Below are positions 6,143 through 32,332 of a stretch of 64,000 nucleotides of DNA, piece by piece. Within the stretch, counting starts at the first letter, position 1. Each line of letters starts with the position of its first letter. A program made the translations under genes and the position numbers. The notes under the pieces are model-generated. The model ran no database searches. It saw only the letters and a list, made by a program, of their open reading frames with translations, and had not been told where the DNA came from. The stretch comes from Devosia sp. SD17-2 (GTDB lineage Bacteria; Pseudomonadota; Alphaproteobacteria; Rhizobiales; Devosiaceae), in the NCBI RefSeq assembly GCF_029201565.1, contig NZ_CP104002.1:1071001-1135000 (forward strand), given 5' to 3'.

Positions 6143-8626
6143 TCACTCCTCGGGCAGGGCGTAGGCGATAACTGCGTCGCTGATGGCCGTTTCCATGAAG
6201 TGATGCCCGCCCGGCGCGATGACGATATATTGGCGGCCATTGACCTCATAGCTGATCGGCGTCGTCTGCCCGCCGCCGGGGAGGATGTCGGTCCAGACGG
6301 TTTCTCCAGTCTCGATATCAATGGCGTGGATGAGATCATCGGTGGTGGCGGCAATGAAGATGAGGCCGCCAGCCGTGATGATCGGGCCGCCATTATTGGG
6401 CGTGCCGATATCGAGCGGGAGGAAGGTCGGGATGCCGAACGGGCCGTTGTTCCGGGCCTGACCGAAGGGGCGATCCCAGACAGTTTCACCGGTCGCCAGG
6501 TCAATGGCGCGAATGCCGCCATAGGGGGGCTGGGTGCAGAGCAGGCCCGTGGGCATGCGCCAGCCGGCATTGACGTCGATGGCATAGGGCGCACCGATCT
6601 GCGGGCCGGCCTCACCGAGCGCAGTCTCACCCTGACCGTCGGCTGCATAGATGGGCGCGAGGCCTGCCGCGTCGGCTTCCTCGCGGGGAACAAGCCGGTT
6701 GTGGTTGGGCATGTTGTTATAATTGGCGATGAGCAGGCCACGTTCGAGATCGATGGCGACGCTCCCCCAGTCATTACCGCCATTATAGCCGGGATACTGG
6801 ATCCAGTGCTGGTCGGTCGTGGGCGGGGTGTAGATGCCCTCGTAGTGGGACTGGCGGAACTGGATGCGGCACCAGAGCTGGTCGAGCGGGGTCATGCCCC
6901 ACATGTCGGCCTCGGTCAGGTCCGGGAAGGCCAGGGTGTGGTAAGCCGAAAAGGGCTGGGTGGGCGAGAGATAGTCGGGCTCCACGCCGCCCTGAGGGAC
7001 TTCGCGCTCCTCTACGGCGAAGAGAGATTCACCGGTGGCGCGATCAAGGATGTAGATGTCGCCCTGCTTTGAGGCGAGCACCAGAGCGGGCACCGGTCCG
7101 TCTGCTGTCGGGAAATCGATCAGTGAGGGCTGGGAGCCCAGATCATAATCCCAGACGTCATTGCGCACGGTCTGGAAGTGCCAGACGTCGTCGCCGCTCG
7201 TGGCATCCACGGCGACAAGTGCTGTCGCGTATTCGTTTTCAAGTGCGCTGCGGTTGGAGCCGTAATAGTCGACCGAGGAATTGCCGAGCGGCAGGTAGAC
7301 GAGGCCGAGCTCCTCGTCGGCGGCTGCGATGGTCCACATATTTGGGGTGCCGCGGGTATAGACTTCGCCTTCTGGCGGGGCGCCGCGATTGGACGGGTTG
7401 CCGAGATCCCAAGCCCAGGCGAGTTCGCCGGTGACGGCATCATAGCCACGTACGACGCCCGACGGTGCGTCCTCGTCCTGCCCGTCCTTGACCTGCGCGC
7501 CCAGAACAGCAACGCCGCGAACAATGGTGGGGGGCGAGGTGACGGCATACCAGCCAGGGACCGTGTCGCCGATGCCTTCTTCGAGATTGACCTGACCCTG
7601 CACGCCGAAATCGGCGCAAGGCTGGCCCGTCTGTGCGTCCACAGCGATGAGACGGGCGTCCAGCGTGCCGACGAGGATACGGGTGGCACAAGCCTCATCG
7701 GGCGTGGCGTCGGGGACCTCGTAAAAGGCGACCCCGCGGCAGGTTGCGCCATAGGGGATGGCGTCGGTGGAGACGCCGGGGTCATAGCGCCACTCTTCGA
7801 GACCGCTGGCGGCGTCGATGGCGATGAGGATGTTCATGGCCGTGCAGAGGTAAAGGTTATTGCCCACCTTGAGAGGCGTGTTTTCTGGCGAGTATTTGCC
7901 CTCTGCGGCTTCGGATGGCATGTCGCCGGTGTTGAATTCCCAGATGCGTTCCAGTCGATCAATATTGTCCGGCGTGATCTGGGCGAGGGGCGAGAAGCGT
8001 ACGGCTTCGTAGGTGCCACCATAGGCTGGCCAGTCCGCGCCGACTTCTGCCACAATGCCGGGGGCGCGGGCGGCCGGTGTTTCGGGCACTTGCGCCACCG
8101 AAGTTTCAGATGAAGCTGCTTCGGGCGCAGGCGCTGTGACGGGTGCTGCTGGCTCCGTCTCGGGCGCAGGCGTCTCCTGGGCGACGAGTTCTGTCTGCTG
8201 GACAGAGGTGAGAATACCGCCAGACAGGCCCAGCGCGCCCAGACCCATAATCGAGGCGGCAAAGGCCGCGCGGCCGCCGCCGAAGGAGCGCTTGAGCGCG
8301 GGTATGGAGATCAGCACGAGAATGAGAATGATGGTGGGGGCGAAGAGGCGTGGCAATTGTGCCCAGCCGTCCATGCCCCGTTCCCAAAGCGCCCAGACGA
8401 GGGTGCCGGCGAAGGTGAGGAGATAGATCCAGACCCCCAGCATCTCGTGCCGCCAGAGGAAGATGCCAGAGGCGATGAGGCCAATGCCGGCAAGAAGGTA
8501 ATACCAAGAGCCGCCGAGCGTGATCAGCCATGCGCCGCCCGCTGCTATCGGGAGGCCGAAGAGGATCATGACCACAGCGAGTATTCGGACTGCCCAAAAT
8601 CCAAAACCATGTCTCGCTTGCGGCAT
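6143..8626 (-). CDS. gcd: Membrane-bound quinoprotein (PQQ) glucose dehydrogenase
   Basis: This enzyme oxidises glucose and other aldoses in the periplasm and passes electrons to ubiquinone. At 827 residues it matches the membrane-bound mGDH length. Residues 1-150 hold about five membrane helices. A Pro/Ala-rich linker (about 165-210) is followed by an eight-bladed PQQ propeller beginning DWPAYGGTYEAVRFSPL. Quinoprotein repeats are visible as RNDVWDYDLGSQPSL and GDIYILDRATGE. Oxidase-cluster genes lie upstream on the same strand after an 85-base gap, so co-transcription is possible but not shown. PQQ synthesis genes are not in this window. Confidence 0.93.
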   Translation of the reverse strand: MPQARHGFGFWAVRILAVVMILFGLPIAAGGAWLITLGGSWYYLLAGIGLIASGIFLWRHEMLGVWIYLLTFAGTLVWALWERGMDGWAQLPRLFAPTIILILVLISIPALKRSFGGGRAAFAASIMGLGALGLSGGILTSVQQTELVAQETPAPETEPAAPVTAPAPEAASSETSVAQVPETPAARAPGIVAEVGADWPAYGGTYEAVRFSPLAQITPDNIDRLERIWEFNTGDMPSEAAEGKYSPENTPLKVGNNLYLCTAMNILIAIDAASGLEEWRYDPGVSTDAIPYGATCRGVAFYEVPDATPDEACATRILVGTLDARLIAVDAQTGQPCADFGVQGQVNLEEGIGDTVPGWYAVTSPPTIVRGVAVLGAQVKDGQDEDAPSGVVRGYDAVTGELAWAWDLGNPSNRGAPPEGEVYTRGTPNMWTIAAADEELGLVYLPLGNSSVDYYGSNRSALENEYATALVAVDATSGDDVWHFQTVRNDVWDYDLGSQPSLIDFPTADGPVPALVLASKQGDIYILDRATGESLFAVEEREVPQGGVEPDYLSPTQPFSAYHTLAFPDLTEADMWGMTPLDQLWCRIQFRQSHYEGIYTPPTTDQHWIQYPGYNGGNDWGSVAIDLERGLLIANYNNMPNHNRLVPREEADAAGLAPIYAADGQGETALGEAGPQIGAPYAIDVNAGWRMPTGLLCTQPPYGGIRAIDLATGETVWDRPFGQARNNGPFGIPTFLPLDIGTPNNGGPIITAGGLIFIAATTDDLIHAIDIETGETVWTDILPGGGQTTPISYEVNGRQYIVIAPGGHHFMETAISDAVIAYALPEE

Positions 8627-10327: not shown

Positions 10328-10731
10328 CGGCAGGTCGAGAGATAGAGGACGGGAATGAAGACGTAGAGCACCGCGATGGCCGAGAGCACGCAGAGCATCA
10401 GCGCCACATGGCTGAGGAAACGGTGGCGCTCCTCGGGCGTGTTGTGTTCGTACTCGAAATCATTGTCGGTGACGCTGCGGGCGCGGACCCGCCAAAGCGT
10501 GATGGTGCAGGCGGCAATGCCGGCGAGTGCGGCCACAGTGACGACGATCAGCCAGATGCGGATGTCTTCTAGGGAGGCGCCGCGCCCGGCCTTTTCACAA
10601 TAGATTGCCGCCAGCACATAGCAGACGAGGAAATGGACGGCCCAGATGATGGGGGCGGCGATGACCTTCCAGAGGTCAGTGCCGTGTCCGGTTTCGTGTT
10701 CGATTTCATTGTTGGCGCGGTTCGCATTCAT
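10324..10731 (-). CDS. Small three-helix membrane protein of the oxidase operon
   Basis: A 135-residue protein with three predicted membrane helices (about residues 20-45, 58-82 and 108-132) and a charged, His-containing N-terminal tail. I do not recognise a family. It overlaps both the subunit I-III fusion gene and ctaG by four bases, which ties it to the oxidase. It could be a small accessory subunit standing in for subunit IV or an assembly factor. Neither role is shown by the sequence. Confidence 0.8.
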   Translation of the reverse strand: MNANRANNEIEHETGHGTDLWKVIAAPIIWAVHFLVCYVLAAIYCEKAGRGASLEDIRIWLIVVTVAALAGIAACTITLWRVRARSVTDNDFEYEHNTPEERHRFLSHVALMLCVLSAIAVLYVFIPVLYLSTCR

Positions 10732-13217
10732 TGGAGTAGCGGAAAGCCTCCTATGATTGCTGAGGTCAGGACGACGCTGAAGCCGAGGAAGTGCCAGTAG
10801 AGCGAAACGTTCCAGATATCGGCGTCATATTTCGGGGTCATCAGGCCGAAGATGGAGCGGGCGAGACAATAGGCCTGCATGATCATGCCCACGGCCAGAT
10901 GCAGGACGACCCAGACGACCAACGCCCAGACGATGGCCGGATAGGCGTGCAGCGTCGGGTCGAGGCCGGTGGTCCAGGGACCGGCCATCATGGCGAGGCC
11001 ACAGCTGGCGGCGGCGATCAGCCCAAGGACGAGCAGGCCCCGCGCCAGCCCGACAGCGCCCGAGCCATTGGCCAGGCGGGCGCCGAAGGTGGCGCCCCAG
11101 GCGACAAGCCCGAGGAGGAAGGCCACCAGCGGCCACTGCCAGCCCGGCCCGGTTTCGCCGGCAGGGGGGAAATCGGTGTGGATGGTCCAGAAAAAGAAGT
11201 AGCCGAAGACGACGGAGAGATAGGCGGTGAGATCGCCGGTCATGGTGATGAACATCGCCCACCAGCCGGTCGATTTCGGCCCCGAGACATAAAGGGGCAA
11301 ATGGCGGCCATCGCCGATGTCCTTGGTGTCCTTTTCGGGGTGAACACCAGTGCCCGTCCACAGCCAGTAGAGCAGCACGGCGAGGAAAAAGACGCCGGAG
11401 AGAGCGGTGATCAACCACCATTTGAAAACGGAGAAAATAAACACGCCGCCGAGGCCGAAGGCCGCCAGCATGGGCAGGAAAGTGGGCTGGCCAACGCGCA
11501 GGACCTGGATCGGCTCGGCGTCGAGGACCGAGGTGACGAGGGTTTCGCGCTTGCCCTCTTCTGCGCTGGGCAGCAGGCCACGGCCCTCATCGATGGTGGA
11601 GAGCAGGGTCTTGTCGTCCCAGAGCGGGTAGCGGCTGTTGATGGTGGGGATGGAGCGCAGGCCCCAATTGTCGGCGGGAACACGGCCGGCCCATTCGAGT
11701 GTGCCGGCATTCCAGACATTGCGGGGCACATCGGGCTCCTTGCGCTTGGGACGTACGCAATCCCAGACAAAGAGCATGAAGCCGGCCGCAAAGATGAAGG
11801 CCCCGACGGTCGAGGTCATGTTGAGCGCGTCCCAGCCGCGCTCGGCGCCATAGGTGTAGACGCGGCGCGGCATGCCCAGAAGGCCGGTGAAGTGCATGGG
11901 CAGGAAGGCGATGTGGAAGCCCACGAAGATCAGCCAGAACGACCATATGCCCATGGCGCGCGACAGCGCCTTGCCGCGGGCGAAGGGGTAATAATAGCGG
12001 ATACCGGCGAGGACCGGGAACAGCATGCCGCCGATGAGCGTGTAGTGCAGGTGGGCGACGACGAAATAGGTGTCGTGGGCCTGGAAGTCGAAGGGGGCGA
12101 CGGCGACCATGACGCCAGTGAGGCCACCAATGATGAAGGTGGCAAGCGCCCCCAGGCAGAAGAGCATTGGCACGGTGCGCACCACAGTGCCCAGCATGAC
12201 GGTAGCGATGAAGGCAAAAAGCTGGATGCCAGTGGGGATGGCCACCGATTCCGACGCAGCGGCGAAAAAGCCGAGCGAAATCGACGGCAGGCCCGTCGTG
12301 AACATATGGTGGACCCAGAGCCCGAACGACAGGAAGCCGGTGCCAATGGCTGACAGCACGATCCAGGAATAGCCGGCGATGGGGCGCTGGGCGAAGGTCG
12401 GCACAATCATGGCGAGGAGTGCGATTGCCGGCAGGAAGATGATGTAGACTTCCGGGTGGCCGAAAATCCAGAACAGGTGCTGCCAGAGGATGGGATCGCC
12501 GCCGCGGCGGACGTCAAAAAAGGGCCAGTCGAAGGCGCGCTCGAGCTCGAAGAGAAAGTCGCCGGCAATGAGCGGCGGGAAGGCAAAGAGGATCATCGCT
12601 CCCACGACCAGCACGTACCAGCCATAGAGCGGGGTGAGGTTGATATGCATGCCGGGGGCACGGCACTTGAGGACGCCGACGATCAGCTCGACCGCTGCGG
12701 CGATGGATGCAACCTCGATAAAGCTCAGGCCCAGAAGCCAGATGTCGGCGCCGATCCCGGCCTGTTCGGTGGAGAGCGGCGGATACATGAACCAGCCGGA
12801 ATCCGGGGCTGCGTCAAAGAAAATAGAGCCGCAGACAAAGACGCCGCCAATGAGAAAACACCAGTAGCCGAAGGCCGAAAGGCGAGGAAATGGCAGGTCG
12901 CGCGCGCCCAGCATGGCGGGCAGGATAAGGATCGCCACGGCCTCGAAAATCGGCACTGCGAAAAGGAACATCATCACCGTGCCATGGAGGGTGAAGATCT
13001 GGTTGTAGGTGTCGGCGCTAACCAGGGTGTTGTCCGGCACGGCCAGCTGCAGCCGGATGATCAGGGCGAGAGCGCCGGCAAAGATCATGAAGGCAAAGGC
13101 AGTGGCGATATACCAAAGGCCGACAACGGAGTTGTTGACGTCGGAGAAGGCGCGCCAACCGGTTGGGCGGGCCCAGACCTTGGCCAATTGCTGTTCTTCG
13201 GCGCTTCTGTCGGTCAT
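10728..13217 (-). CDS. ctaD: Cytochrome c oxidase subunit I-III fusion
   Basis: This is the catalytic core of a heme-copper oxidase fused to subunit III. The first about 560 residues are subunit I: a heme a ligand in FTLHGTV, the Tyr-His cross-link motif GHPEVY near residue 255, Cu-B histidines in WVHHMF, and heme ligands in YFVVAHLHY near 390. From about residue 610 a second set of helices corresponds to subunit III (DLTAYLSVVFGYFFFWT to the C-terminus). The total of 829 residues matches known I-III fusions in caa3 oxidases. The HPEVY tyrosine supports an A-type enzyme. It overlaps ctaC by four bases. Confidence 0.94.
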   Translation of the reverse strand: MTDRSAEEQQLAKVWARPTGWRAFSDVNNSVVGLWYIATAFAFMIFAGALALIIRLQLAVPDNTLVSADTYNQIFTLHGTVMMFLFAVPIFEAVAILILPAMLGARDLPFPRLSAFGYWCFLIGGVFVCGSIFFDAAPDSGWFMYPPLSTEQAGIGADIWLLGLSFIEVASIAAAVELIVGVLKCRAPGMHINLTPLYGWYVLVVGAMILFAFPPLIAGDFLFELERAFDWPFFDVRRGGDPILWQHLFWIFGHPEVYIIFLPAIALLAMIVPTFAQRPIAGYSWIVLSAIGTGFLSFGLWVHHMFTTGLPSISLGFFAAASESVAIPTGIQLFAFIATVMLGTVVRTVPMLFCLGALATFIIGGLTGVMVAVAPFDFQAHDTYFVVAHLHYTLIGGMLFPVLAGIRYYYPFARGKALSRAMGIWSFWLIFVGFHIAFLPMHFTGLLGMPRRVYTYGAERGWDALNMTSTVGAFIFAAGFMLFVWDCVRPKRKEPDVPRNVWNAGTLEWAGRVPADNWGLRSIPTINSRYPLWDDKTLLSTIDEGRGLLPSAEEGKRETLVTSVLDAEPIQVLRVGQPTFLPMLAAFGLGGVFIFSVFKWWLITALSGVFFLAVLLYWLWTGTGVHPEKDTKDIGDGRHLPLYVSGPKSTGWWAMFITMTGDLTAYLSVVFGYFFFWTIHTDFPPAGETGPGWQWPLVAFLLGLVAWGATFGARLANGSGAVGLARGLLVLGLIAAASCGLAMMAGPWTTGLDPTLHAYPAIVWALVVWVVLHLAVGMIMQAYCLARSIFGLMTPKYDADIWNVSLYWHFLGFSVVLTSAIIGGFPLLQ

Positions 13218-26557: not shown

Positions 26558-27559
26558 ATGGAATTCGGCATCACCTTCAAAGGGTTCATCGAGGCAGATC
26601 GCGCCCGTTATCTGGTCCGCGCGGCCGAATACGCCGGCTTTTCCTATTGCTGGTTCTATGACAGCCATATCTTGTGGCGCGATTGCTATGCGGCGATTGC
26701 CATGTGCATGGAACATACGACCGACATGCGTTTCGGCCCGCTGGTGACCAACCCGGACGTGCGCGACTGGTCGGTTGCCGCTTCGATCTTTGGGTCGCTC
26801 TCCAAGCAGAGCGGTGGGCGATTTGATCTCGCGGTGGGCCGTGGCGACAGCTCGATGCGCGTCATGGGCAAGAAGCCGGCGACGCTGGCCCGGGTGGCCG
26901 ATTTCATCGACAAGACCAAGGCCATGGTCCGAGGCGAGGAAGTCAGCTACGGAGAAATCCCGGCTGCGGTGAAATTCCCCTGGGCTGTCGGACACGAAAT
27001 GCCAAGCTGGATCGCCGCCTATGGCCCGCTGGCGCTGAAGACGGCGGGCGAGCATGCCGATGGCGTGGTGTTGCAGATTGCCGATCCCGGGCTTTGCAAA
27101 TGGTTCACTGACCAGTGCGTCGATGCCGGCAAGGCCGCAGGCAAGGACATGTCGGGCTTCCGCTCCATGGCCGCTGCGCCGGCCTATTTTGGCGACAAGA
27201 AGCGGGCCATCGAGAAGGTGAAATGGTTCCCGGCCATGGTGGGCAATCACGTCGCCGATATCGTCGAAAAATACGGTTCGGACAGCGATAAGGTGCCGGC
27301 GAGCCTCACCAGCTACATCGAAAAGCGGCGCGGATACGACTATTCCAAGCACGGCCAGGCCGATAATCCCTATCTCGATTTCATCACTGACGACGTGGTG
27401 GAAAGCTTCTGTGTGCTGGGCGAGCCGGAGGAGCATGTCTCCAAGGTGCGCGAGCTCGAGGCGGCAGGGGTGACCCAGTTCAACATCTATCTCGATAGTG
27501 GCGACGAGGAGGAAATCATCGCCAACTACGGACGGTACGTGATCCCGGCGTTCCGCTAG
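26558..27559 (+). CDS. Luciferase-like (LLM class) F420-dependent oxidoreductase
   Basis: TIM-barrel oxidoreductase of the bacterial luciferase superfamily, 333 residues. It begins MEFGITFKGF, and carries YCWFYDSHILWRDCY, RFGPLVTNPDVRDW, DLAVGRGDSSMRVMGKKP and MPSWIAAYGP, a pattern I associate with the F420 family TIGR03842, close to methylenetetrahydromethanopterin reductase. The substrate is not known for that family. GGGGGAGAG precedes the ATG at 26558; the frame is open further upstream but that part runs through the terminator and operator. It is the first gene of the F420 cassette. Confidence 0.88.
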   Translation: MEFGITFKGFIEADRARYLVRAAEYAGFSYCWFYDSHILWRDCYAAIAMCMEHTTDMRFGPLVTNPDVRDWSVAASIFGSLSKQSGGRFDLAVGRGDSSMRVMGKKPATLARVADFIDKTKAMVRGEEVSYGEIPAAVKFPWAVGHEMPSWIAAYGPLALKTAGEHADGVVLQIADPGLCKWFTDQCVDAGKAAGKDMSGFRSMAAAPAYFGDKKRAIEKVKWFPAMVGNHVADIVEKYGSDSDKVPASLTSYIEKRRGYDYSKHGQADNPYLDFITDDVVESFCVLGEPEEHVSKVRELEAAGVTQFNIYLDSGDEEEIIANYGRYVIPAFR

Positions 27560-27576
27560 GGGCAGCGCGATCTGAT

Positions 27577-27690
27577 CCCTACCTAGCCTCCTGCCGGGAG
27601 GGGAAAGGATCTGCCGATGGCTCACGATGGCCGCGGCAAACTGGATGTGTCCCTCCCCCTCGATAGGGGGAGGTTAGGTGGGGGTGGATC
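27577..27690. repeat. Composite GC-rich palindromic repeat inside the F420 cassette
   Basis: The left unit has CCTACCTAGCCTCC and GGGAGG; the right unit has CCTCCCCCT-cgat-AGGGGGAGG and the flank TTAGGTGGGGGTGG. The middle contains GGATCTGCCGATGGCTCACG, closely matched in the 38725 copy. It lies between the LLM gene and fgd, so it may set their relative expression. Confidence 0.8.
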
Positions 27691-27718
27691 CCACCGGCTT
27701 CGGAGGAGACCTTAGAAA

Positions 27719-28723
27719 ATGCGCTTCGGGTACAAGGCTTCGGCCGAGCAATTCGCCCCGGGCAAGCTGATGCAGTTTGCCGTGGAGGCAGAAGAGGCGG
27801 GTTTTGACTCGGTCTTCGTGTCGGACCATTTCCAACCCTGGAAACACACTGACGGCCACGCCCCCTTCGCCCCTGCCTGGATGGCAGCCGTGCTGGCGCG
27901 GACGGAGCGGATCGTGCTGGGTACATCGGTGCTGACGCCCACGTTCCGCTTGCATCCTTCCGTGGTCGCACACGCTTTCGGCACGCTGGGCGCCATGTTC
28001 CCCGGCCGCGTCATTTTGGGCGTCGGGACGGGCGAGTCTCTCAATGAGGTGCCGGCAACCGGCATGGAATGGCCCGAACTCAAGGAGCGTTCGGCGCGCC
28101 TGCGCGAGGCCGTCAAACTCATTCGCCAGCTGTGGACCGAGGACCGTGTCAGCTTCGAGGGTCAATATTACAAGACCGTCAATGCCACGATCTATGACAA
28201 GCCCCATGCGCCCGTGCCGATCTATATCGCCGCCGGCGGGCCGCTCAACGCGAAGTACGCGGGGCGGGAAGGGGATGGGTTCATCTGCACTTCCGGCAAG
28301 GGCGCCGAGCTCTACGTCGATCAATTGCTACCGAATGTTGCCACCGGCCGCAGCGAATCCGGACGGGAGAGCAAGCCATTCGAACGGATGATCGAGGTGA
28401 AAGTGTCCTTCGACCCCGATGCCGACCGCGCGCTCAATGACACGCGCCACTGGGCTGCACTCTCGCTCTCGGCGGAGGAAAAGCATTCCGTGCAGGACCC
28501 GGAGGAAATGGAGCGGCTGGCCGAGGCTTTGCCGATCGAGCGGGTGGCCAAGCGCTGGATCGTGTCGAGCGATCCCGATGAGCATGTCGCCGATATCAAG
28601 ACCTATATCGACTACGGCTTTGACCATCTTGTCTTTCATGCGCCGGGCCCGGATCAAAGCCGGTTCCTCTCGCTCTACGCAGAGGATATTCTCCCCAGAC
28701 TGCGGAAACTCACGGGGGCATGA
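27719..28723 (+). CDS. fgd: F420-dependent glucose-6-phosphate dehydrogenase
   Basis: Oxidises glucose-6-phosphate to 6-phosphogluconolactone while reducing F420. The sequence follows Mycobacterium FGD1 closely as I remember it: [11 protein letters not shown] at the N-terminus, VSDHFQPW (Asp36, His37, Trp41), [16 protein letters not shown] (Glu106), FICTSGKG (Lys194), AEEKHS (Lys255) and AKRWIV (Arg279). These correspond to FGD1 Asp39, His40, Trp44, Glu109 and the phosphate ligands Lys198, Lys259 and Arg283. The 334 residues match the family. It overlaps cofE by four bases. Such a close actinobacterial-type enzyme in a proteobacterium suggests transfer. Confidence 0.93.
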
Positions 28724-29550
28724 TGACGCCTCGATTGACTGTCTGGGGCCTAGAAGGCATTCCCGAAATCGTGGCCGGGGACGACCTCGTCGTGCGGATC
28801 GGCGAAGCAGTTGACGCGGCGGCCCACAACGACCCTGACGCGGCCCTGCGCGACGGCGACATACTGGTCGTCACGAGCAAGATCGTCTCCAAGTCCGAGG
28901 GCATGCAGGTGCCGGCCAGCGAGCGCGAGAAGGCAATTGCCGACGATACGGTGCGCATCGTGGCGGAGCGCGTCCATCCGGGCGGGGTGATGAAGATCGT
29001 CGAGACGCGGCAGGGCCTTATCATGGCGGCCGCCGGGATCGATATGTCCAATGTTCCTGAAGGTGTCGCGCTGCGTCTCCCCGAGGATCCGGACCGCTCC
29101 GCGCGGGCACTCTGTGCCGGGCTGCGGCAGCGGCTGGGTGTCGATATCGGCGTGATCATCACCGACACGATCGGGCGCGCCTGGCGCGTTGGCCAGACCG
29201 ACCAGGCTATTGGCGCCGCTGGGCTGCAATTGACCGACGATCTGCGTGGCGCCAATGATGCCAATGGCCGGCCTCTGCATGTCACGGTCGCGGTCGTGGC
29301 GGACGAGATTGCGGGTGCCGCCGATCTCGTCAAGGGCAAGACGAGCGGGATTCCGGTGGCCGTGGTGCGTGGGCTCGGGCGGCTGGTGCGCGATCTCGAT
29401 GGCCCCGGAGCCCGCACATTGGCGCGCGTCGGCGATGACGACATGTTCCGCTTCGGTTCAGCAGAGGCGTTTCGGCTGGGCTATGAAGCGGCGATGGCTG
29501 AACTGGGCGAAGGGCGCATCGCCGCGTCGACCAAGCAGCGGCAGGACTGA
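28720..29550 (+). CDS. cofE: Coenzyme F420-0:L-glutamate ligase
   Basis: Adds the gamma-linked glutamate tail to F420-0 using GTP, the last step of F420 synthesis. Family motifs are WGLEGIPEI near residue 8, [16 protein letters not shown] near 46-61, [23 protein letters not shown] near 145-167, and [18 protein letters not shown] near 204. At 276 residues it is a stand-alone CofE, without the nitroreductase-like domain of mycobacterial FbiB. It is coupled to fgd (ATGA overlap) and to the binding-protein gene four bases downstream. Earlier pathway genes (CofC, CofD, CofG/H) are absent from the window. Confidence 0.93.
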
Positions 29551-29554
29551 GGTC

Positions 29555-30487
29555 ATGCGTGTCCAATTCGCCATTCTGGCGGCTCTTGCATTGAGCTGCC
29601 CCGCTGTCGCGGCGACAGACGACCCGCTGGTGATCGACAATTGCGGCGTGATGGTTCAGTTCGAGGCTCCCCCGCAGCGCGTTGTTACCATCAAGTCAAC
29701 CGCGACCGAGCTGCTACTGGCGCTGGGAGTGGGTGATCGCATCGTCGGAGTGGGGTTTCTGGATGGCTCGCTGCCCGCAGAATTTTCCGGTACCAATCTC
29801 CCTATGCTCTCGGAAAAACTGCCATCGCAGGAAGTTGTGCTCGAAGCCGAGCCGGATCTGATCTACGGCGGCTGGGAGAGCAATTTTGCCGCCGACGGCG
29901 CCGGTGAGCGCGCGACGCTCGCACAGCTGGGCGTCGACACCTACGTCGCGCCGGCAGCTTGTCGCACGGTCCGACCACCCAGGCTCGACTTCAACGTGCT
30001 GTTCGACGAAATGGCCGAGATGGGTGAGATTTTCGACGTTTCAGACGCCGCCACGGCGCTGGTGGAGAGCCAAAAGGCCATGCTGGCCGGTACACCCGCC
30101 GATGATCGTGGGTTGAGCGCGCTTTGGTACTCTTCCGGCACCAAGACCCCCTATGTCGGCGCGGGCACTAATGCGCCGGCCATGATCATGGACGCCCTTG
30201 GGCTCACCAATATTTTCGCTGAAGTGGACGACGGCTGGGTATCGGCCAGCTGGGAAGTCATTGTCGATGCCAATCCCGATGTGATCGTCCTCGTCGACGC
30301 GGCGTGGAATTCTGCCGAGCAAAAACGCAAACTCCTCGCCGAAAACCCGATCACGCGAGAACTTGATGCGGTGATCCATCAGCGTTATCTCGTCGTTCCA
30401 TTCCCTGCGGGGGAGGCGGGCGTGCGCAATGTGCCCGCGGTCGTCGATATGGCGGCCCAGCTGCGCGCGCTGGATTTTGCGCGGTGA
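29555..30487 (+). CDS. Periplasmic binding protein, probable F420-0 importer
   Basis: Class III (BtuF/FepB-like) binding protein, 310 residues, with a signal peptide ending near residue 24 (PAVAA). The fold cue is APPQRVVTIKSTATELLLALGVGDRIVGVGF, split here as APPQRVVTIKSTATE and LLLALGVGDRIVG, followed by LSEKLPSQEVVLEAEPDLI. The family usually carries cobalamin, heme or siderophores. The KSTATELLLALG segment and the position directly after cofE and fgd instead match the proposed F420-0 binding protein family (TIGR03868). The ligand has not been proved for that family. Confidence 0.82.
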   Translation: MRVQFAILAALALSCPAVAATDDPLVIDNCGVMVQFEAPPQRVVTIKSTATELLLALGVGDRIVGVGFLDGSLPAEFSGTNLPMLSEKLPSQEVVLEAEPDLIYGGWESNFAADGAGERATLAQLGVDTYVAPAACRTVRPPRLDFNVLFDEMAEMGEIFDVSDAATALVESQKAMLAGTPADDRGLSALWYSSGTKTPYVGAGTNAPAMIMDALGLTNIFAEVDDGWVSASWEVIVDANPDVIVLVDAAWNSAEQKRKLLAENPITRELDAVIHQRYLVVPFPAGEAGVRNVPAVVDMAAQLRALDFAR

Positions 30488-30527
30488 CCCTTGGGTCTTT
30501 TCCACTCCGCACTGATCGATCCCGGTG

Positions 30528-31544
30528 ATGATGGCGACGCCTCTGCGACTGTCGGTGTTTTTCGCTCTCTGCGTCGTCCTCGTTTGCAGCGCACTGATCG
30601 CGGTGACGCTTGGTCCGGCCGAGATTTCGCCGGGCGAGGTGTGGACGATCGTGCTGCATCATCTCGGCATCCTGCCCGAAAGCCCGGTCAGTCGTTTGCG
30701 CGACGCGATCGTCTGGGAGTTGCGGCTGCCTCGTGTGCTTGTCGCCTGCGGCATCGGCGCGGGTCTGGCGCTCGCAGGCGCGGTCATGCAGGCGCTGACG
30801 CGCAATCCCCTCGCTGACCCCTATCTACTTGGGCTGTCCTCCGGTGCTGCCCTCGGCGCGGTGACAATATTGCTGATGGGCGCGGCGCTGCTTATGCCGA
30901 TCGGCGCTTTCTTGGGGGCGCTCGCTGCTCTGGGCCTGGCACTGGGCATTGCGCATCTTCTCGGCGGAGCCACACCATCGCGCGCCATTCTGGCCGGAAT
31001 CTGCATATCGGCGCTGGCATCCGCTGGCACGTCCTTCCTCATCTTCTGGTCAGCCACCGGCGATAGTTATCGGGAAATCCTGTCCTGGCTCATGGGCTCG
31101 CTCAGCGGGTCGCTCTGGAGCGATGTGGGGCTGGTGGGGGCGGGGCTAGTGCTCTGTGCGCCGGTCATCCTCTTTTCAGCACGGGCGCTCGATGGTTTTG
31201 TGTTCGGTGACGTCTCGGCTGCGAGCCTCGGCATTGACGTCAACCGGCTGCGCTGGATCCTGCTCATCGCCACGGCTCTCCTGACTGGCATCATGGTGGC
31301 TATTGGCGGGGCGATCGGCTTTGTCGGCCTCGTCGTTCCACACGCGGTGCGGCTGGTCACTGGCGCGCGACACTGGAGGCTTTTGCCATGGTCCATGGTG
31401 GTCGGGGCCCTCGTCATGCTTTGGGCTGATACGGCGGCACGGACGCTGTTTGACCCCCGTGAATTGCCTGTAGGCATTGTCACGGCGCTCATTGGCGCAC
31501 CGGCATTCTTCTTCGTCCTCATGCGCTACAGGCGCGTCACATGA
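30528..31544 (+). CDS. FecCD/BtuC-type ABC permease, probable F420-0 importer
   Basis: Inner-membrane permease of the FecCD family, 338 residues with about ten helices. Typical motifs are LRLPRVLVACGIGAGLALAG, MQALTRNPLADPYLLGLSSGA, and near the C-terminus IGFVGLVVPHAVRLVTG and RELPVGIVTALIGAPAFFFVL. GTG 30525, ATG 30528 and ATG 30531 are all possible starts; ATG 30528 is used. It matches the permease expected for the F420-0 cassette (TIGR03869) by position, and overlaps the ATPase gene by four bases. Confidence 0.85.
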   Translation: MMATPLRLSVFFALCVVLVCSALIAVTLGPAEISPGEVWTIVLHHLGILPESPVSRLRDAIVWELRLPRVLVACGIGAGLALAGAVMQALTRNPLADPYLLGLSSGAALGAVTILLMGAALLMPIGAFLGALAALGLALGIAHLLGGATPSRAILAGICISALASAGTSFLIFWSATGDSYREILSWLMGSLSGSLWSDVGLVGAGLVLCAPVILFSARALDGFVFGDVSAASLGIDVNRLRWILLIATALLTGIMVAIGGAIGFVGLVVPHAVRLVTGARHWRLLPWSMVVGALVMLWADTAARTLFDPRELPVGIVTALIGAPAFFFVLMRYRRVT

Positions 31545-32332
31545 GTGGTCTTGTGGTGTCCAACCTGACCATGGTGGCTGGTGGGCTGGCCATTGTGGCC
31601 GGTGCCGGTCTGTCGGCCCATGCCGGGGAAATTACCGGGCTGGTGGGGCCAAATGGCGCCGGAAAGTCTACCCTGTTGTCAGGGGCCCTGGGCCTTCGGC
31701 CGATTGCCAGCGGGGCGGTGCGCTTCCGCGGCTCTGACCTGCTCGCCATGCCACGGCGCCAACGTGCGCAGATCGCGGCCTATGTGGAGCAAGCGGCCAA
31801 TACCGAGGACCGCCTGACCGTTGCGGATGTGGTCGGGCTTGGGCGGATGCCCTTCCAGAGTGTGTGGCAGGACGCGGGCGCGCAGGCCACCGACGCGGAC
31901 ATCATCGCTCAGGCACTTGATGATGTCGGACTGGGTGCGCTCGCTCAGCGGCTCTACACCAGTCTTTCCGGCGGAGAGCGGCAGAGGGTGCACCTCGCGC
32001 GGGCGCTTGCCCAGCAGCCGCAGCTTTTGGTTCTCGATGAACCGACCAGCCATCTCGACATTCACGCGCAGATCGAGGTGCTGGATCTGCTGAAGCGCTC
32101 GGCGAACGCCGGGGCCACAGTTCTTATTGCCCTTCATGATCTCAACCTTGCAATGCGCTATTGCGACCGGCTGGCGGTGATGCAATCGGGAAAGGTGGTC
32201 GCCGAAGGGACGCCTGATGCCGTGCTGACGGCCGACCTGCTTGACAGGGTCTATGGGGTTGCCGCACGGCGGATCGAGGATCCGCAGACAGGGGCGCCGG
32301 TCATCGTCTATGACGGGGTTGCACGAGGCTAA
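31541..32332 (+). CDS. FecE/BtuD-type ABC ATPase, probable F420-0 importer
   Basis: Cytoplasmic ATPase of 263 residues. It has Walker A GPNGAGKST near residue 36, the LSGGERQRVHLARALAQ signature region near 144, Walker B LLVLDEPTSHLD, and switch His in LIALHDLNLAMRYCD. The class matches FecCD importers. Cassette position supports the proposed F420-0 ATPase family (TIGR03873). It is the last gene of the cassette; its stop overlaps the convergent EAL gene by four bases. Confidence 0.85.
   Translation: MSGLVVSNLTMVAGGLAIVAGAGLSAHAGEITGLVGPNGAGKSTLLSGALGLRPIASGAVRFRGSDLLAMPRRQRAQIAAYVEQAANTEDRLTVADVVGLGRMPFQSVWQDAGAQATDADIIAQALDDVGLGALAQRLYTSLSGGERQRVHLARALAQQPQLLVLDEPTSHLDIHAQIEVLDLLKRSANAGATVLIALHDLNLAMRYCDRLAVMQSGKVVAEGTPDAVLTADLLDRVYGVAARRIEDPQTGAPVIVYDGVARG

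What the first reader, a model, noticed from the sequence alone, without database searches (positions are those of the whole stretch)
26558..32332. Coenzyme F420-0 salvage cassette in an apparently alphaproteobacterial genome
Six codirectional genes: LLM oxidoreductase, fgd, cofE, then FecCD-type binding protein, permease and ATPase, the last five with gaps of at most about 40 bases or overlaps. From memory, TIGR03868/03869/03873 were proposed as an F420-0 importer from actinobacteria that have cofE but lack the earlier F420 pathway, sometimes beside an F420-dependent glucose-6-phosphate dehydrogenase. The same arrangement here would mean the organism imports F420-0 (roughly half a kilodalton, small enough for porins), traps it by CofE polyglutamylation, reduces it with Fgd and uses it in the LLM enzyme. 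I am not aware of a tested example in Proteobacteria.
Basis: partly seen in the sequence, partly recalled or inferred. Interest (0 to 1): 0.93.

Follow-up and report, generated by a model that had tools for sequence, protein, structure and literature searches.

The report
Coenzyme F420 scavenging genes in Devosia
A Devosia-like bacterium appears unable to make the redox cofactor F420 but carries a compact, inherited gene set that would import a precursor made by other microbes, trap it in the cell, charge it with electrons and use it, as if F420 were a vitamin.

Summary
The six-gene block is real. Five of the six proteins match TIGR03842, TIGR03554 (Fgd), TIGR01916 (CofE), TIGR03868 and TIGR03869 over their cut-offs; the ATPase's best family is TIGR03873, below its cut-off (298 of 372 bits). 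The window's complete genome shows no CofD or CofC at E<=1 and CofH only at 12.8 bits; cofG was not searched. In all 136 held genomes of the family, the transporter's binding protein (copies of 329 bits or more) and cofE occur in the same 69 genomes, with an adjacent pair in each, and cofD in none; the LLM is in 68 of the 69 and no other. Trees put the Devosiaceae transporter and CofE among actinobacterial ones. Best reading: F420-0 import, trapping by CofE, reduction by Fgd, use by the LLM. No step is biochemically shown. Against a simple salvage rule, 34 of 50 tested actinobacterial carriers have cofD, often in the transporter locus. NCBI already names some Devosia homologues putative F420-0 binding proteins, so this is a new member, in another phylum, of a predicted kind.

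The parts
26558..27559 (+). LLM-class oxidoreductase, TIGR03842 family; presumed F420H2 consumer
   Evidence: 487 bits against cut-off 295; best solved relatives are entries named methylenetetrahydromethanopterin reductase (Mer), E 6e-30; in 68 of 69 cassette genomes and 0 of 67 others
27560..27718 (+). intergenic stretch holding a CCTCCCCCT...AGGGGGAGG palindrome-like element; separates the LLM gene from the five-gene run
   Evidence: sequence; one copy in the window with up to 3 mismatches allowed
27719..28723 (+). fgd, F420-dependent glucose-6-phosphate dehydrogenase
   Evidence: TIGR03554 510/420 bits; solved Fgd entries 5lxe E 4e-143 and 3b4y E 3e-139
28720..29550 (+). cofE, F420-0:L-glutamate ligase, single domain (276 aa)
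   Evidence: TIGR01916 213/181 bits; solved F420-0:gamma-glutamyl ligases, E 1e-28
29555..30487 (+). periplasmic substrate-binding protein with signal peptide, putative F420-0 binder
   Evidence: TIGR03868 407/392 bits; AlphaFold model pLDDT 91.9, best PDB match 4MLZ, TM 0.89/0.92
30525..31544 (+). FecCD-type permease, putative F420-0 importer
   Evidence: TIGR03869 443/437 bits
31541..32332 (+). ABC ATPase of the importer
   Evidence: TIGR03873 best family, 298 bits, below the 372 cut-off; next the heme ATPase model PRK13548, 244 of 261

Best explanation
The block is a self-contained F420 salvage module. F420-0 released by other microbes enters the periplasm, probably through general porins (inferred). 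It is bound by the soluble TIGR03868 protein and pumped in by the FecCD-type permease and ATPase (inferred from family and synteny). CofE adds glutamates, which traps it and gives the working cofactor (enzyme family tested by profile; activity not shown). Fgd reduces it with glucose-6-phosphate; in Pelagibacterium-like genomes another LLM stands in fgd's place. The TIGR03842 LLM enzyme then spends F420H2 on an unknown substrate. The organism is unlikely to make F420-0 itself, because no CofC or CofD was found by profile search.
For: Profiles over the cut-off for five of six proteins. No CofD or CofC at E<=1, CofH best 12.8 bits, in a 100% complete one-contig genome. Family-wide (136 genomes): the binding-protein set (copies >=329 bits) equals the cofE set, 69 and 69; cofD 0 of 136; fgd 62, all inside the 69; LLM 68, all inside the 69, the missing one being a 55%-complete genome. 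An adjacent cofE and binding-protein pair on the same strand (gap at most 615 bases) in 69 of 69; LLM within 3.2 kb in 65 of 69, three others lying on a different contig. The LLM sits upstream in 12 and downstream in 53 of those 65 yet stays linked. In a sample of the class, 0 of 384 other genomes have the binding protein at E<=1e-60. Transporter and CofE trees both put the first-copy Devosiaceae rows in a Devosiaceae clade among Actinobacteria. CofE would have no F420-0 to extend if the cargo were FO, because CofD is absent (pathway knowledge). FO is reported to leave cells by diffusion because it is neutral (PMC12282290, passages), so a dedicated importer fits the charged F420-0 better (inference).
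Against: The ATPase misses the TIGR03873 cut-off and scores 244 of 261 bits for a heme ATPase model. The co-occurrence counts come from one linked block inherited within one family, so they are not 69 independent events. In Actinobacteria the same transporter often coexists with cofD: 34 of 50 genomes, 26 of those with a cofD-cluster ORF in the same locus. So transporter presence alone does not mean salvage. The title of the solved relative 4MLZ names no ligand. Seven cassette genomes have no fgd at E<=1e-100, and the LLM in its place, in the two scanned, scores higher on an FMN-type model (291-296 bits, below that model's 399 cut-off) than on the F420-type model it passes (281-283, cut-off 210). 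TIGR03842 outside this family was looked for only in the fetched loci, so its tie to F420 is tested only here.
Confidence: 0.84

Rival explanations
1. The transporter imports a different member of the F420 series: short-tailed F420-1/2, dehydro-F420-0 or 3PG-F420-0, rather than F420-0 itself; CofE then lengthens the tail.
For: CofE would act on any of these (inference). 3PG-F420 and dehydro-F420-0 exist in nature (PMC8498797, passages).
Against: The window's CofE is single-domain (276 aa) and lacks the reductase half of FbiB that dehydro-F420-0 would need (recalled). Long glutamate tails would be poor cargo for a FecCD-type importer (inference).
Confidence: 0.1
2. The transporter imports FO, the tail-less deazaflavin.
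For: In Actinobacteria 26 of 34 cofD-bearing carriers have a cofD-cluster ORF, and 17 a cofC-cluster ORF, inside the transporter locus, and I identified no FO synthase there. That is what an FO importer feeding CofC/CofD/CofE would look like. Whether those genomes lack FO synthase elsewhere was not tested.
Against: In Devosiaceae no genome of 136 has cofD, so FO could not be converted and the linked cofE would have no substrate. FO leaves cells by diffusion (PMC12282290, passages).
Confidence: 0.03
3. An ordinary iron-siderophore, heme or cobalamin importer that happens to lie beside F420 genes.
For: Same superfamily: FecCD permease, Peripla_BP_2. The ATPase comes close to a heme ATPase model, 244 of 261 bits; binding protein and permease match EitA, BtuF, BtuC and Fec/Fhu models only well below their cut-offs. 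Heme and siderophore proteins follow in fold ranking.
Against: 69 of 69 linkage with cofE and no cofE in the 67 other genomes. TIGR03868 and TIGR03869 over the cut-off, and TIGR03873 the ATPase's best family. The clearly better structural match is the Jonesia protein 4MLZ, TM 0.89 against 0.79 or less in the 50 rows listed. Three family paralogues with 242-262 bits (L052-L054) and the genome's own 174-bit paralogue (L055) have no cofE beside them.
Confidence: 0.02
4. The organism makes F420-0 de novo through unrecognised CofC/CofD/FO-synthase replacements, and the importer is auxiliary.
For: Absence by profile is not proof; cofG was not searched separately; the CofH search found only 12.8-bit and 12.4-bit matches.
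Against: Two pathway profiles silent at E<=1 and a third at noise level in a complete genome, and cofD silent at E<=0.001 in all 136 family genomes.
Confidence: 0.02

Closest known systems
Putative F420-0 ABC transporter (NCBIfam TIGR03868/TIGR03869/TIGR03873), recalled as proposed for Actinobacteria
   Same: Same three protein families, beside cofE, here also with fgd as recalled for marine actinobacterium PHSC20C1; no cofC or cofD found in the host genome. The solved Jonesia denitrificans protein 4MLZ is the best structural and sequence match; it was not scored against TIGR03868 here.
   Different: Alphaproteobacterial host; no lipobox-like motif in 34 Devosiaceae rows (32 distinct) against one in 59 of 62 actinobacterial rows; ATPase below the cut-off; constant TIGR03842 LLM partner.
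Actinobacterial transporter loci with cofD and cofC (Cellulomonas, Agromyces, Brevibacterium and others)
   Same: Same transporter; of 34 cofD-bearing carriers 11 have cofE and 12 a TIGR03842-type LLM in the locus.
   Different: They have F420-0-making genes, in 26 of 34 in the same locus. Over all 62 actinobacterial loci, the 18 with this LLM have an amidase next to it in 18 and a dihydropyrimidinase in the same run in 15, neighbours not found in Devosiaceae stretches.
F420 producers in Alphaproteobacteria (Oligotropha, Paracoccus)
   Same: F420 in the same class; [quoted passage not shown]
   Different: They make F420, in trace amounts (same passages); this organism shows no cofC or cofD.
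BtuFCD cobalamin import
   Same: Same transporter superfamily and same logic of importing a cofactor.
   Different: Profiles below cut-off (BtuF 18.5 of 234; BtuC 232 of 461 and 227 of 334; BtuD 145 of 281).

Membership tests
TIGR03868 putative F420-0 substrate-binding protein | score over curated cut-off | tested here: met
   406.6 against 392.4 bits
TIGR03869 putative F420-0 permease | score over curated cut-off | tested here: met
   443.1 against 437.35 bits
TIGR03873 putative F420-0 ATPase | score over curated cut-off | tested here: not met
   297.7 against 372.4 bits; still the best of 190 families matched
F420-0 salvage cassette | cofE present beside the transporter | tested here: met
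   TIGR01916 213.1 against 180.65 bits; adjacent pair in 69 of 69 family genomes with both
F420-0 salvage cassette | no F420-0 biosynthesis (cofC, cofD) in the genome | tested here: met
   no match at E<=1; cofD 0 of 136 in family
F420-0 salvage cassette | no FO synthase (cofG/cofH or fbiC) | tested here: inconclusive
   cofH profile only 12.8 bits, E 0.07; cofG profile not run
F420-0 salvage cassette | binding and uptake of F420-0 | not testable with these tools
   needs purified protein and F420-0
TIGR03554 Fgd | score over equivalog cut-off | tested here: met
   509.9 against 420 bits
TIGR03842 LLM, predicted F420-dependent | score over cut-off | tested here: met
   487.1 against 295.45 bits
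TIGR03842 LLM, predicted F420-dependent | uses F420 rather than FMN | not testable with these tools
   only indirect: 68 of 69 cassette genomes, 0 of 67 others
BtuF/BtuC cobalamin importer | score over curated cut-off | tested here: not met
   BtuF 18.5 of 234; BtuC 231.9 of 461 and 226.6 of 334

The most novel reading that the evidence does not exclude
F420 works as a traded vitamin: about half of the held genomes of one alphaproteobacterial family are obligate F420 scavengers whose imported F420 economy exists mainly to run one enzyme, the TIGR03842 LLM. That family could be an F420H2-dependent reductase of a pyrimidine-like ring, since its actinobacterial relatives sit in dihydropyrimidinase/amidase gene runs beside the same transporter. 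The transporter family as a whole may have split into F420-0 importers (cofE only) and deazaflavin importers feeding cofC/cofD.
Probability: 0.3. Interest if true: 0.82.

Novelty: new member of a known kind. Interest (0 to 1): 0.62.

Why it matters
F420 import is a database prediction; phrase searches for it in the open-access library returned no paper. Devosiaceae are a clean place to test it: cofE and importer together in 69 genomes, cofD in none of 136. If true, F420 is a shared good, genomes without its biosynthesis genes can still use F420 enzymes, and surveys that count F420 users by cofD or fbiC miss them. It also points at a new F420-dependent reaction (the LLM).

Tried and rejected
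Considered and rejected: siderophore/heme/B12 importer (no such model over its cut-off, linkage to cofE). A simple rule that this transporter marks F420-0 auxotrophs in all bacteria (34 of 50 tested actinobacterial carriers have cofD). F420-dependent FDORs of the Rv1155 type as F420 users in this genome: best 34.3 bits against a cut-off of 79. LLM as true Mer: 123 of 349 bits. A dihydropyrimidinase or amidase near the Devosiaceae LLM: no tblastn match at 1e-15 in the window or in 38 fetched Devosiaceae stretches, some of them short or without a cassette. Rfam on the window: no match at gathering thresholds. The intergenic palindrome: one copy in the window, not pursued.

Dropped or limited rows: 8 family genomes with only 234-262-bit TIGR03868 matches were set aside from the 69 (none has cofE); the cut lies in the gap between 329 and 269 bits, and the 329-bit copy (G397) covers only part of the model. 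12 of 62 actinobacterial loci were not tested for cofD because the tool takes 50. Of the 16 counted as cofD-lacking, 4 have weak matches of 19-38 bits below the cut-off and 8 are metagenome-assembled by their titles. The transporter tree uses 12 of 32 first-copy Devosiaceae loci, 2 second copies, 50 of 62 actinobacterial loci and 4 outgroup rows; the CofE tree uses 41 rows. Gene clusters rest on BLAST clustering of ORFs in loci that are partly cut off by contig ends; only some members were checked by family search. In one search the FO-synthase check was a recalled cysteine motif: 11 ORFs of 280 aa or more carry it; from the Arg/Cys-rich stretch around the motif I judged them to be wrong-frame ORFs and did not search them against families. 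(lipobox count) mis-windowed some rows and is replaced.

Full report
OBSERVATION. The block lies at 26558-32332 on the + strand. Profile scores: LLM TIGR03842 487/295 bits, Fgd TIGR03554 510/420, CofE TIGR01916 213/181, binding protein TIGR03868 407/392, permease TIGR03869 443/437, ATPase TIGR03873 298/372 (below the cut-off, but the best family; next a heme ATPase model at 244/261).

HOST GENOME. The window lies in a 4,231,113-base, one-contig genome, 100% complete, 0.2% contaminated. Profiles for CofD and CofC find nothing at E<=1; CofH finds 12.8 bits at best. In each of these of 14 control genomes match over the cut-off. CofG was not searched separately. Close relatives of the binding protein are named Devosia, and NCBI already labels several 'putative F420-0 ABC transporter substrate-binding protein'. 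So the annotation, though not the analysis, pre-exists.

FAMILY-WIDE TEST. All 136 held genomes of the family were searched. TIGR03868 matches at E<=1e-60 occur in 77 and are bimodal: 69 genomes have a copy of 329 bits or more, 8 only copies of 234-262 bits. CofE over the cut-off: 69. The two sets of 69 are identical. CofD at E<=0.001: 0 of 136. Fgd at E<=1e-100: 62, all inside the 69. LLM TIGR03842: 68, all inside the 69; the exception is a 55%-complete genome. An adjacent cofE and binding-protein pair (same strand, gap at most 615 bases) exists in 69 of 69; cofE and fgd lie within 269 bases in 61 (one genome has fgd on another contig, seven have none); LLM and binding protein within 3,217 bases in 65, with three on different contigs and one absent. 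Of those 65, the LLM gene is upstream of the cassette in 12 and downstream in 53: it is kept with the cassette although its place changed. These counts reflect one linked block and are not independent events. In a sample of the class, none of 384 other genomes has the binding protein at E<=1e-60; of 14 control genomes one, Deinobacterium chartae, does, below the cut-off.

VARIANTS. In the two whose proteins I scanned (L046, L047) fgd's place is taken by an LLM that passes TIGR03557 (281-283 bits, cut-off 210), reaches only 208-218 of 420 for TIGR03554, and scores 291-296 on the FMN-type model TIGR03885, below its cut-off of 399. Two more stretches (L048, L049) show a gene 34% identical to Fgd in the same place; the other three were not looked at. 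Of 27 actinobacterial loci with cofE, 24 carry a 57-80% identical LLM in the same locus. Thus an F420-reducing enzyme seems needed, but not always Fgd (inference). Two genomes hold a second, different cassette (L043, L044): binding proteins 58% and 49% and CofE 37% and 42% identical to the window's, one of them among opp-type transporter, diaminopropionate ammonia-lyase and peptidase-like genes. Lower-scoring paralogues (L052-L055) have no cofE beside them.

ORIGIN. All 18 carry cofE; 16 carry fgd and 15 the TIGR03842 LLM, the missing cases being the two Pelagibacterium loci and three loci on short contigs. In a binding-protein plus permease tree the Devosiaceae copies, second copies included, form one clade (SH-aLRT 96) among Actinobacteria, rooted on four paralogues (quick method, with a warning about long outgroup branches). 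In the CofE tree, rooted at the midpoint only, the twelve first-copy Devosiaceae rows form one clade (100) beside actinobacterial cassette CofEs, and the two second copies stand apart. This fits one transfer of the main cassette from Actinobacteria; the direction rests on the rooting of one tree. The binding protein changed with its envelope: a lipobox-like motif is present in 59 of 62 actinobacterial rows and in 0 of 34 Devosiaceae rows, 32 of them distinct.

STRUCTURE. The AlphaFold model of the window's binding protein (pLDDT 91.9) best matches 4MLZ, a periplasmic binding protein of Jonesia denitrificans (TM 0.89/0.92; sequence E 1e-85). Its title names no ligand. Fgd aligns with a solved Fgd at E 4e-143, CofE with solved F420-0:gamma-glutamyl ligases at E 1e-28, and the LLM with Mer at E 6e-30.

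RESULT AGAINST THE SIMPLE STORY. Of 50 actinobacterial carriers tested (of 62 found), 34 have CofD over the cut-off; of the other 16, four have weak matches and twelve none, and eight of the 16 are metagenome-assembled by title. In 26 of the 34 a cofD-cluster ORF lies in the transporter locus, in 17 a cofC and in 11 a cofE one; of the 16, 12 have cofE in the locus and none cofC or cofD (some cluster members checked). On the tree the two kinds of carrier interleave (8 changes, at least 6 forced by well-supported branches). So the transporter is shared by possible producers and non-producers. Either producers also scavenge, or some branches import FO for CofC/CofD. I could not check those genomes for FO synthase.

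THE LLM. Of 62 actinobacterial loci 18 carry a TIGR03842-type LLM. All 18 have a neighbouring amidase (two scanned: best model N-carbamoylputrescine amidase, 253 and 260 of 410 bits, below its cut-off). In 15 a dihydropyrimidinase completes the run on the same strand; in two Brevibacterium loci it lies about 10 kb away and in a third none was found. Five dihydropyrimidinases scanned score 550-555 against TIGR02033's 393. The order suggests that the LLM supplies the reduction step ahead of ring opening (inference). The window's LLM is 42% identical to one of these, and no such neighbours were found in Devosiaceae stretches, so its substrate is open.

MECHANISM. Shown: families, linkage, co-occurrence, no CofC or CofD by profile. 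Inferred: porin entry, F420-0 as cargo, glutamate trapping, reduction by Fgd, use by the LLM. F420-0 is favoured over FO because without CofD the linked CofE would have nothing to extend, and because FO is said to diffuse out of cells unaided (PMC12282290, passages; the same paper reports that an fbiC mutant gains fluorescence from wild-type spent medium).

LITERATURE. The 2021 F420 review (PMC8498797, passages) does not contain the words salvage or uptake in its main text; [quoted passage not shown] PMC11104420 (passages) labels an ABC transporter in the Mycetohabitans F420 cluster as one for heavy-metal resistance. PMC8764529 (passages) says that F420 genes of a few Gram-negatives most likely came from actinobacteria. 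The phrase 'F420-0 ABC transporter' and the family accessions, 'F420-0 transporter', 'F420-0 import' and 4MLZ are in no paper of the open-access library. Other searches, seen as listings only apart from the papers named here: five papers; nine; Devosia, nine; none; eleven; none; eleven; Pelagibacterium, six. Subscription papers are not covered; two papers looked up by id were not held. The original rationale of TIGR03868 (Jonesia, PHSC20C1) is recalled.

VERDICT. A genuine F420-0 salvage module in Devosiaceae, well supported by genomic evidence and untested at the bench: a new member, in another phylum, of a predicted kind.

Noticed in passing
L089:2692-6044, L131:4119-7379 and 13 other actinobacterial loci: TIGR03842-type LLM in one run with dihydropyrimidinase and an amidase, beside the F420-0 transporter: candidate F420H2-dependent pyrimidine reductase in place of NADPH-dependent dihydropyrimidine dehydrogenase.
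   Followed up: partly
L072, L080, L089, L112, L130 and others: cofD, often with cofC, in the locus of the putative F420-0 importer in Actinobacteria, with no FO synthase identified there; possible FO-importing branch.
   Followed up: partly
L043:1-19901 and L044:1-16001: Second, divergent cofE plus importer cassettes in two Devosiaceae genomes, one set in a cluster with opp-type transporter, diaminopropionate ammonia-lyase and peptidase-like genes.
   Followed up: partly
L046:9119-10171, L047:7694-8716: LLM passing TIGR03557 in fgd's place in Pelagibacterium-like cassettes, 57-80% identical to LLMs in 24 of 27 actinobacterial loci with cofE: possibly another F420-reducing dehydrogenase, though an FMN-type model scores higher below its cut-off.
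   Followed up: partly
window 27652-27685: Palindrome-like CCTCCCCCTCGATAGGGGGAGG element between the LLM gene and fgd; single copy in the window.
   Followed up: no
L055:5393-8290 (own genome 3128000-3142000): Paralogous binding protein, permease and ATPase (174 bits to TIGR03868) without cofE nearby; substrate unknown.
   Followed up: no
window 6143-8626: PQQ-dependent glucose/alcohol dehydrogenase-type protein near a cytochrome oxidase subunit I at 10728-13217.
   Followed up: no
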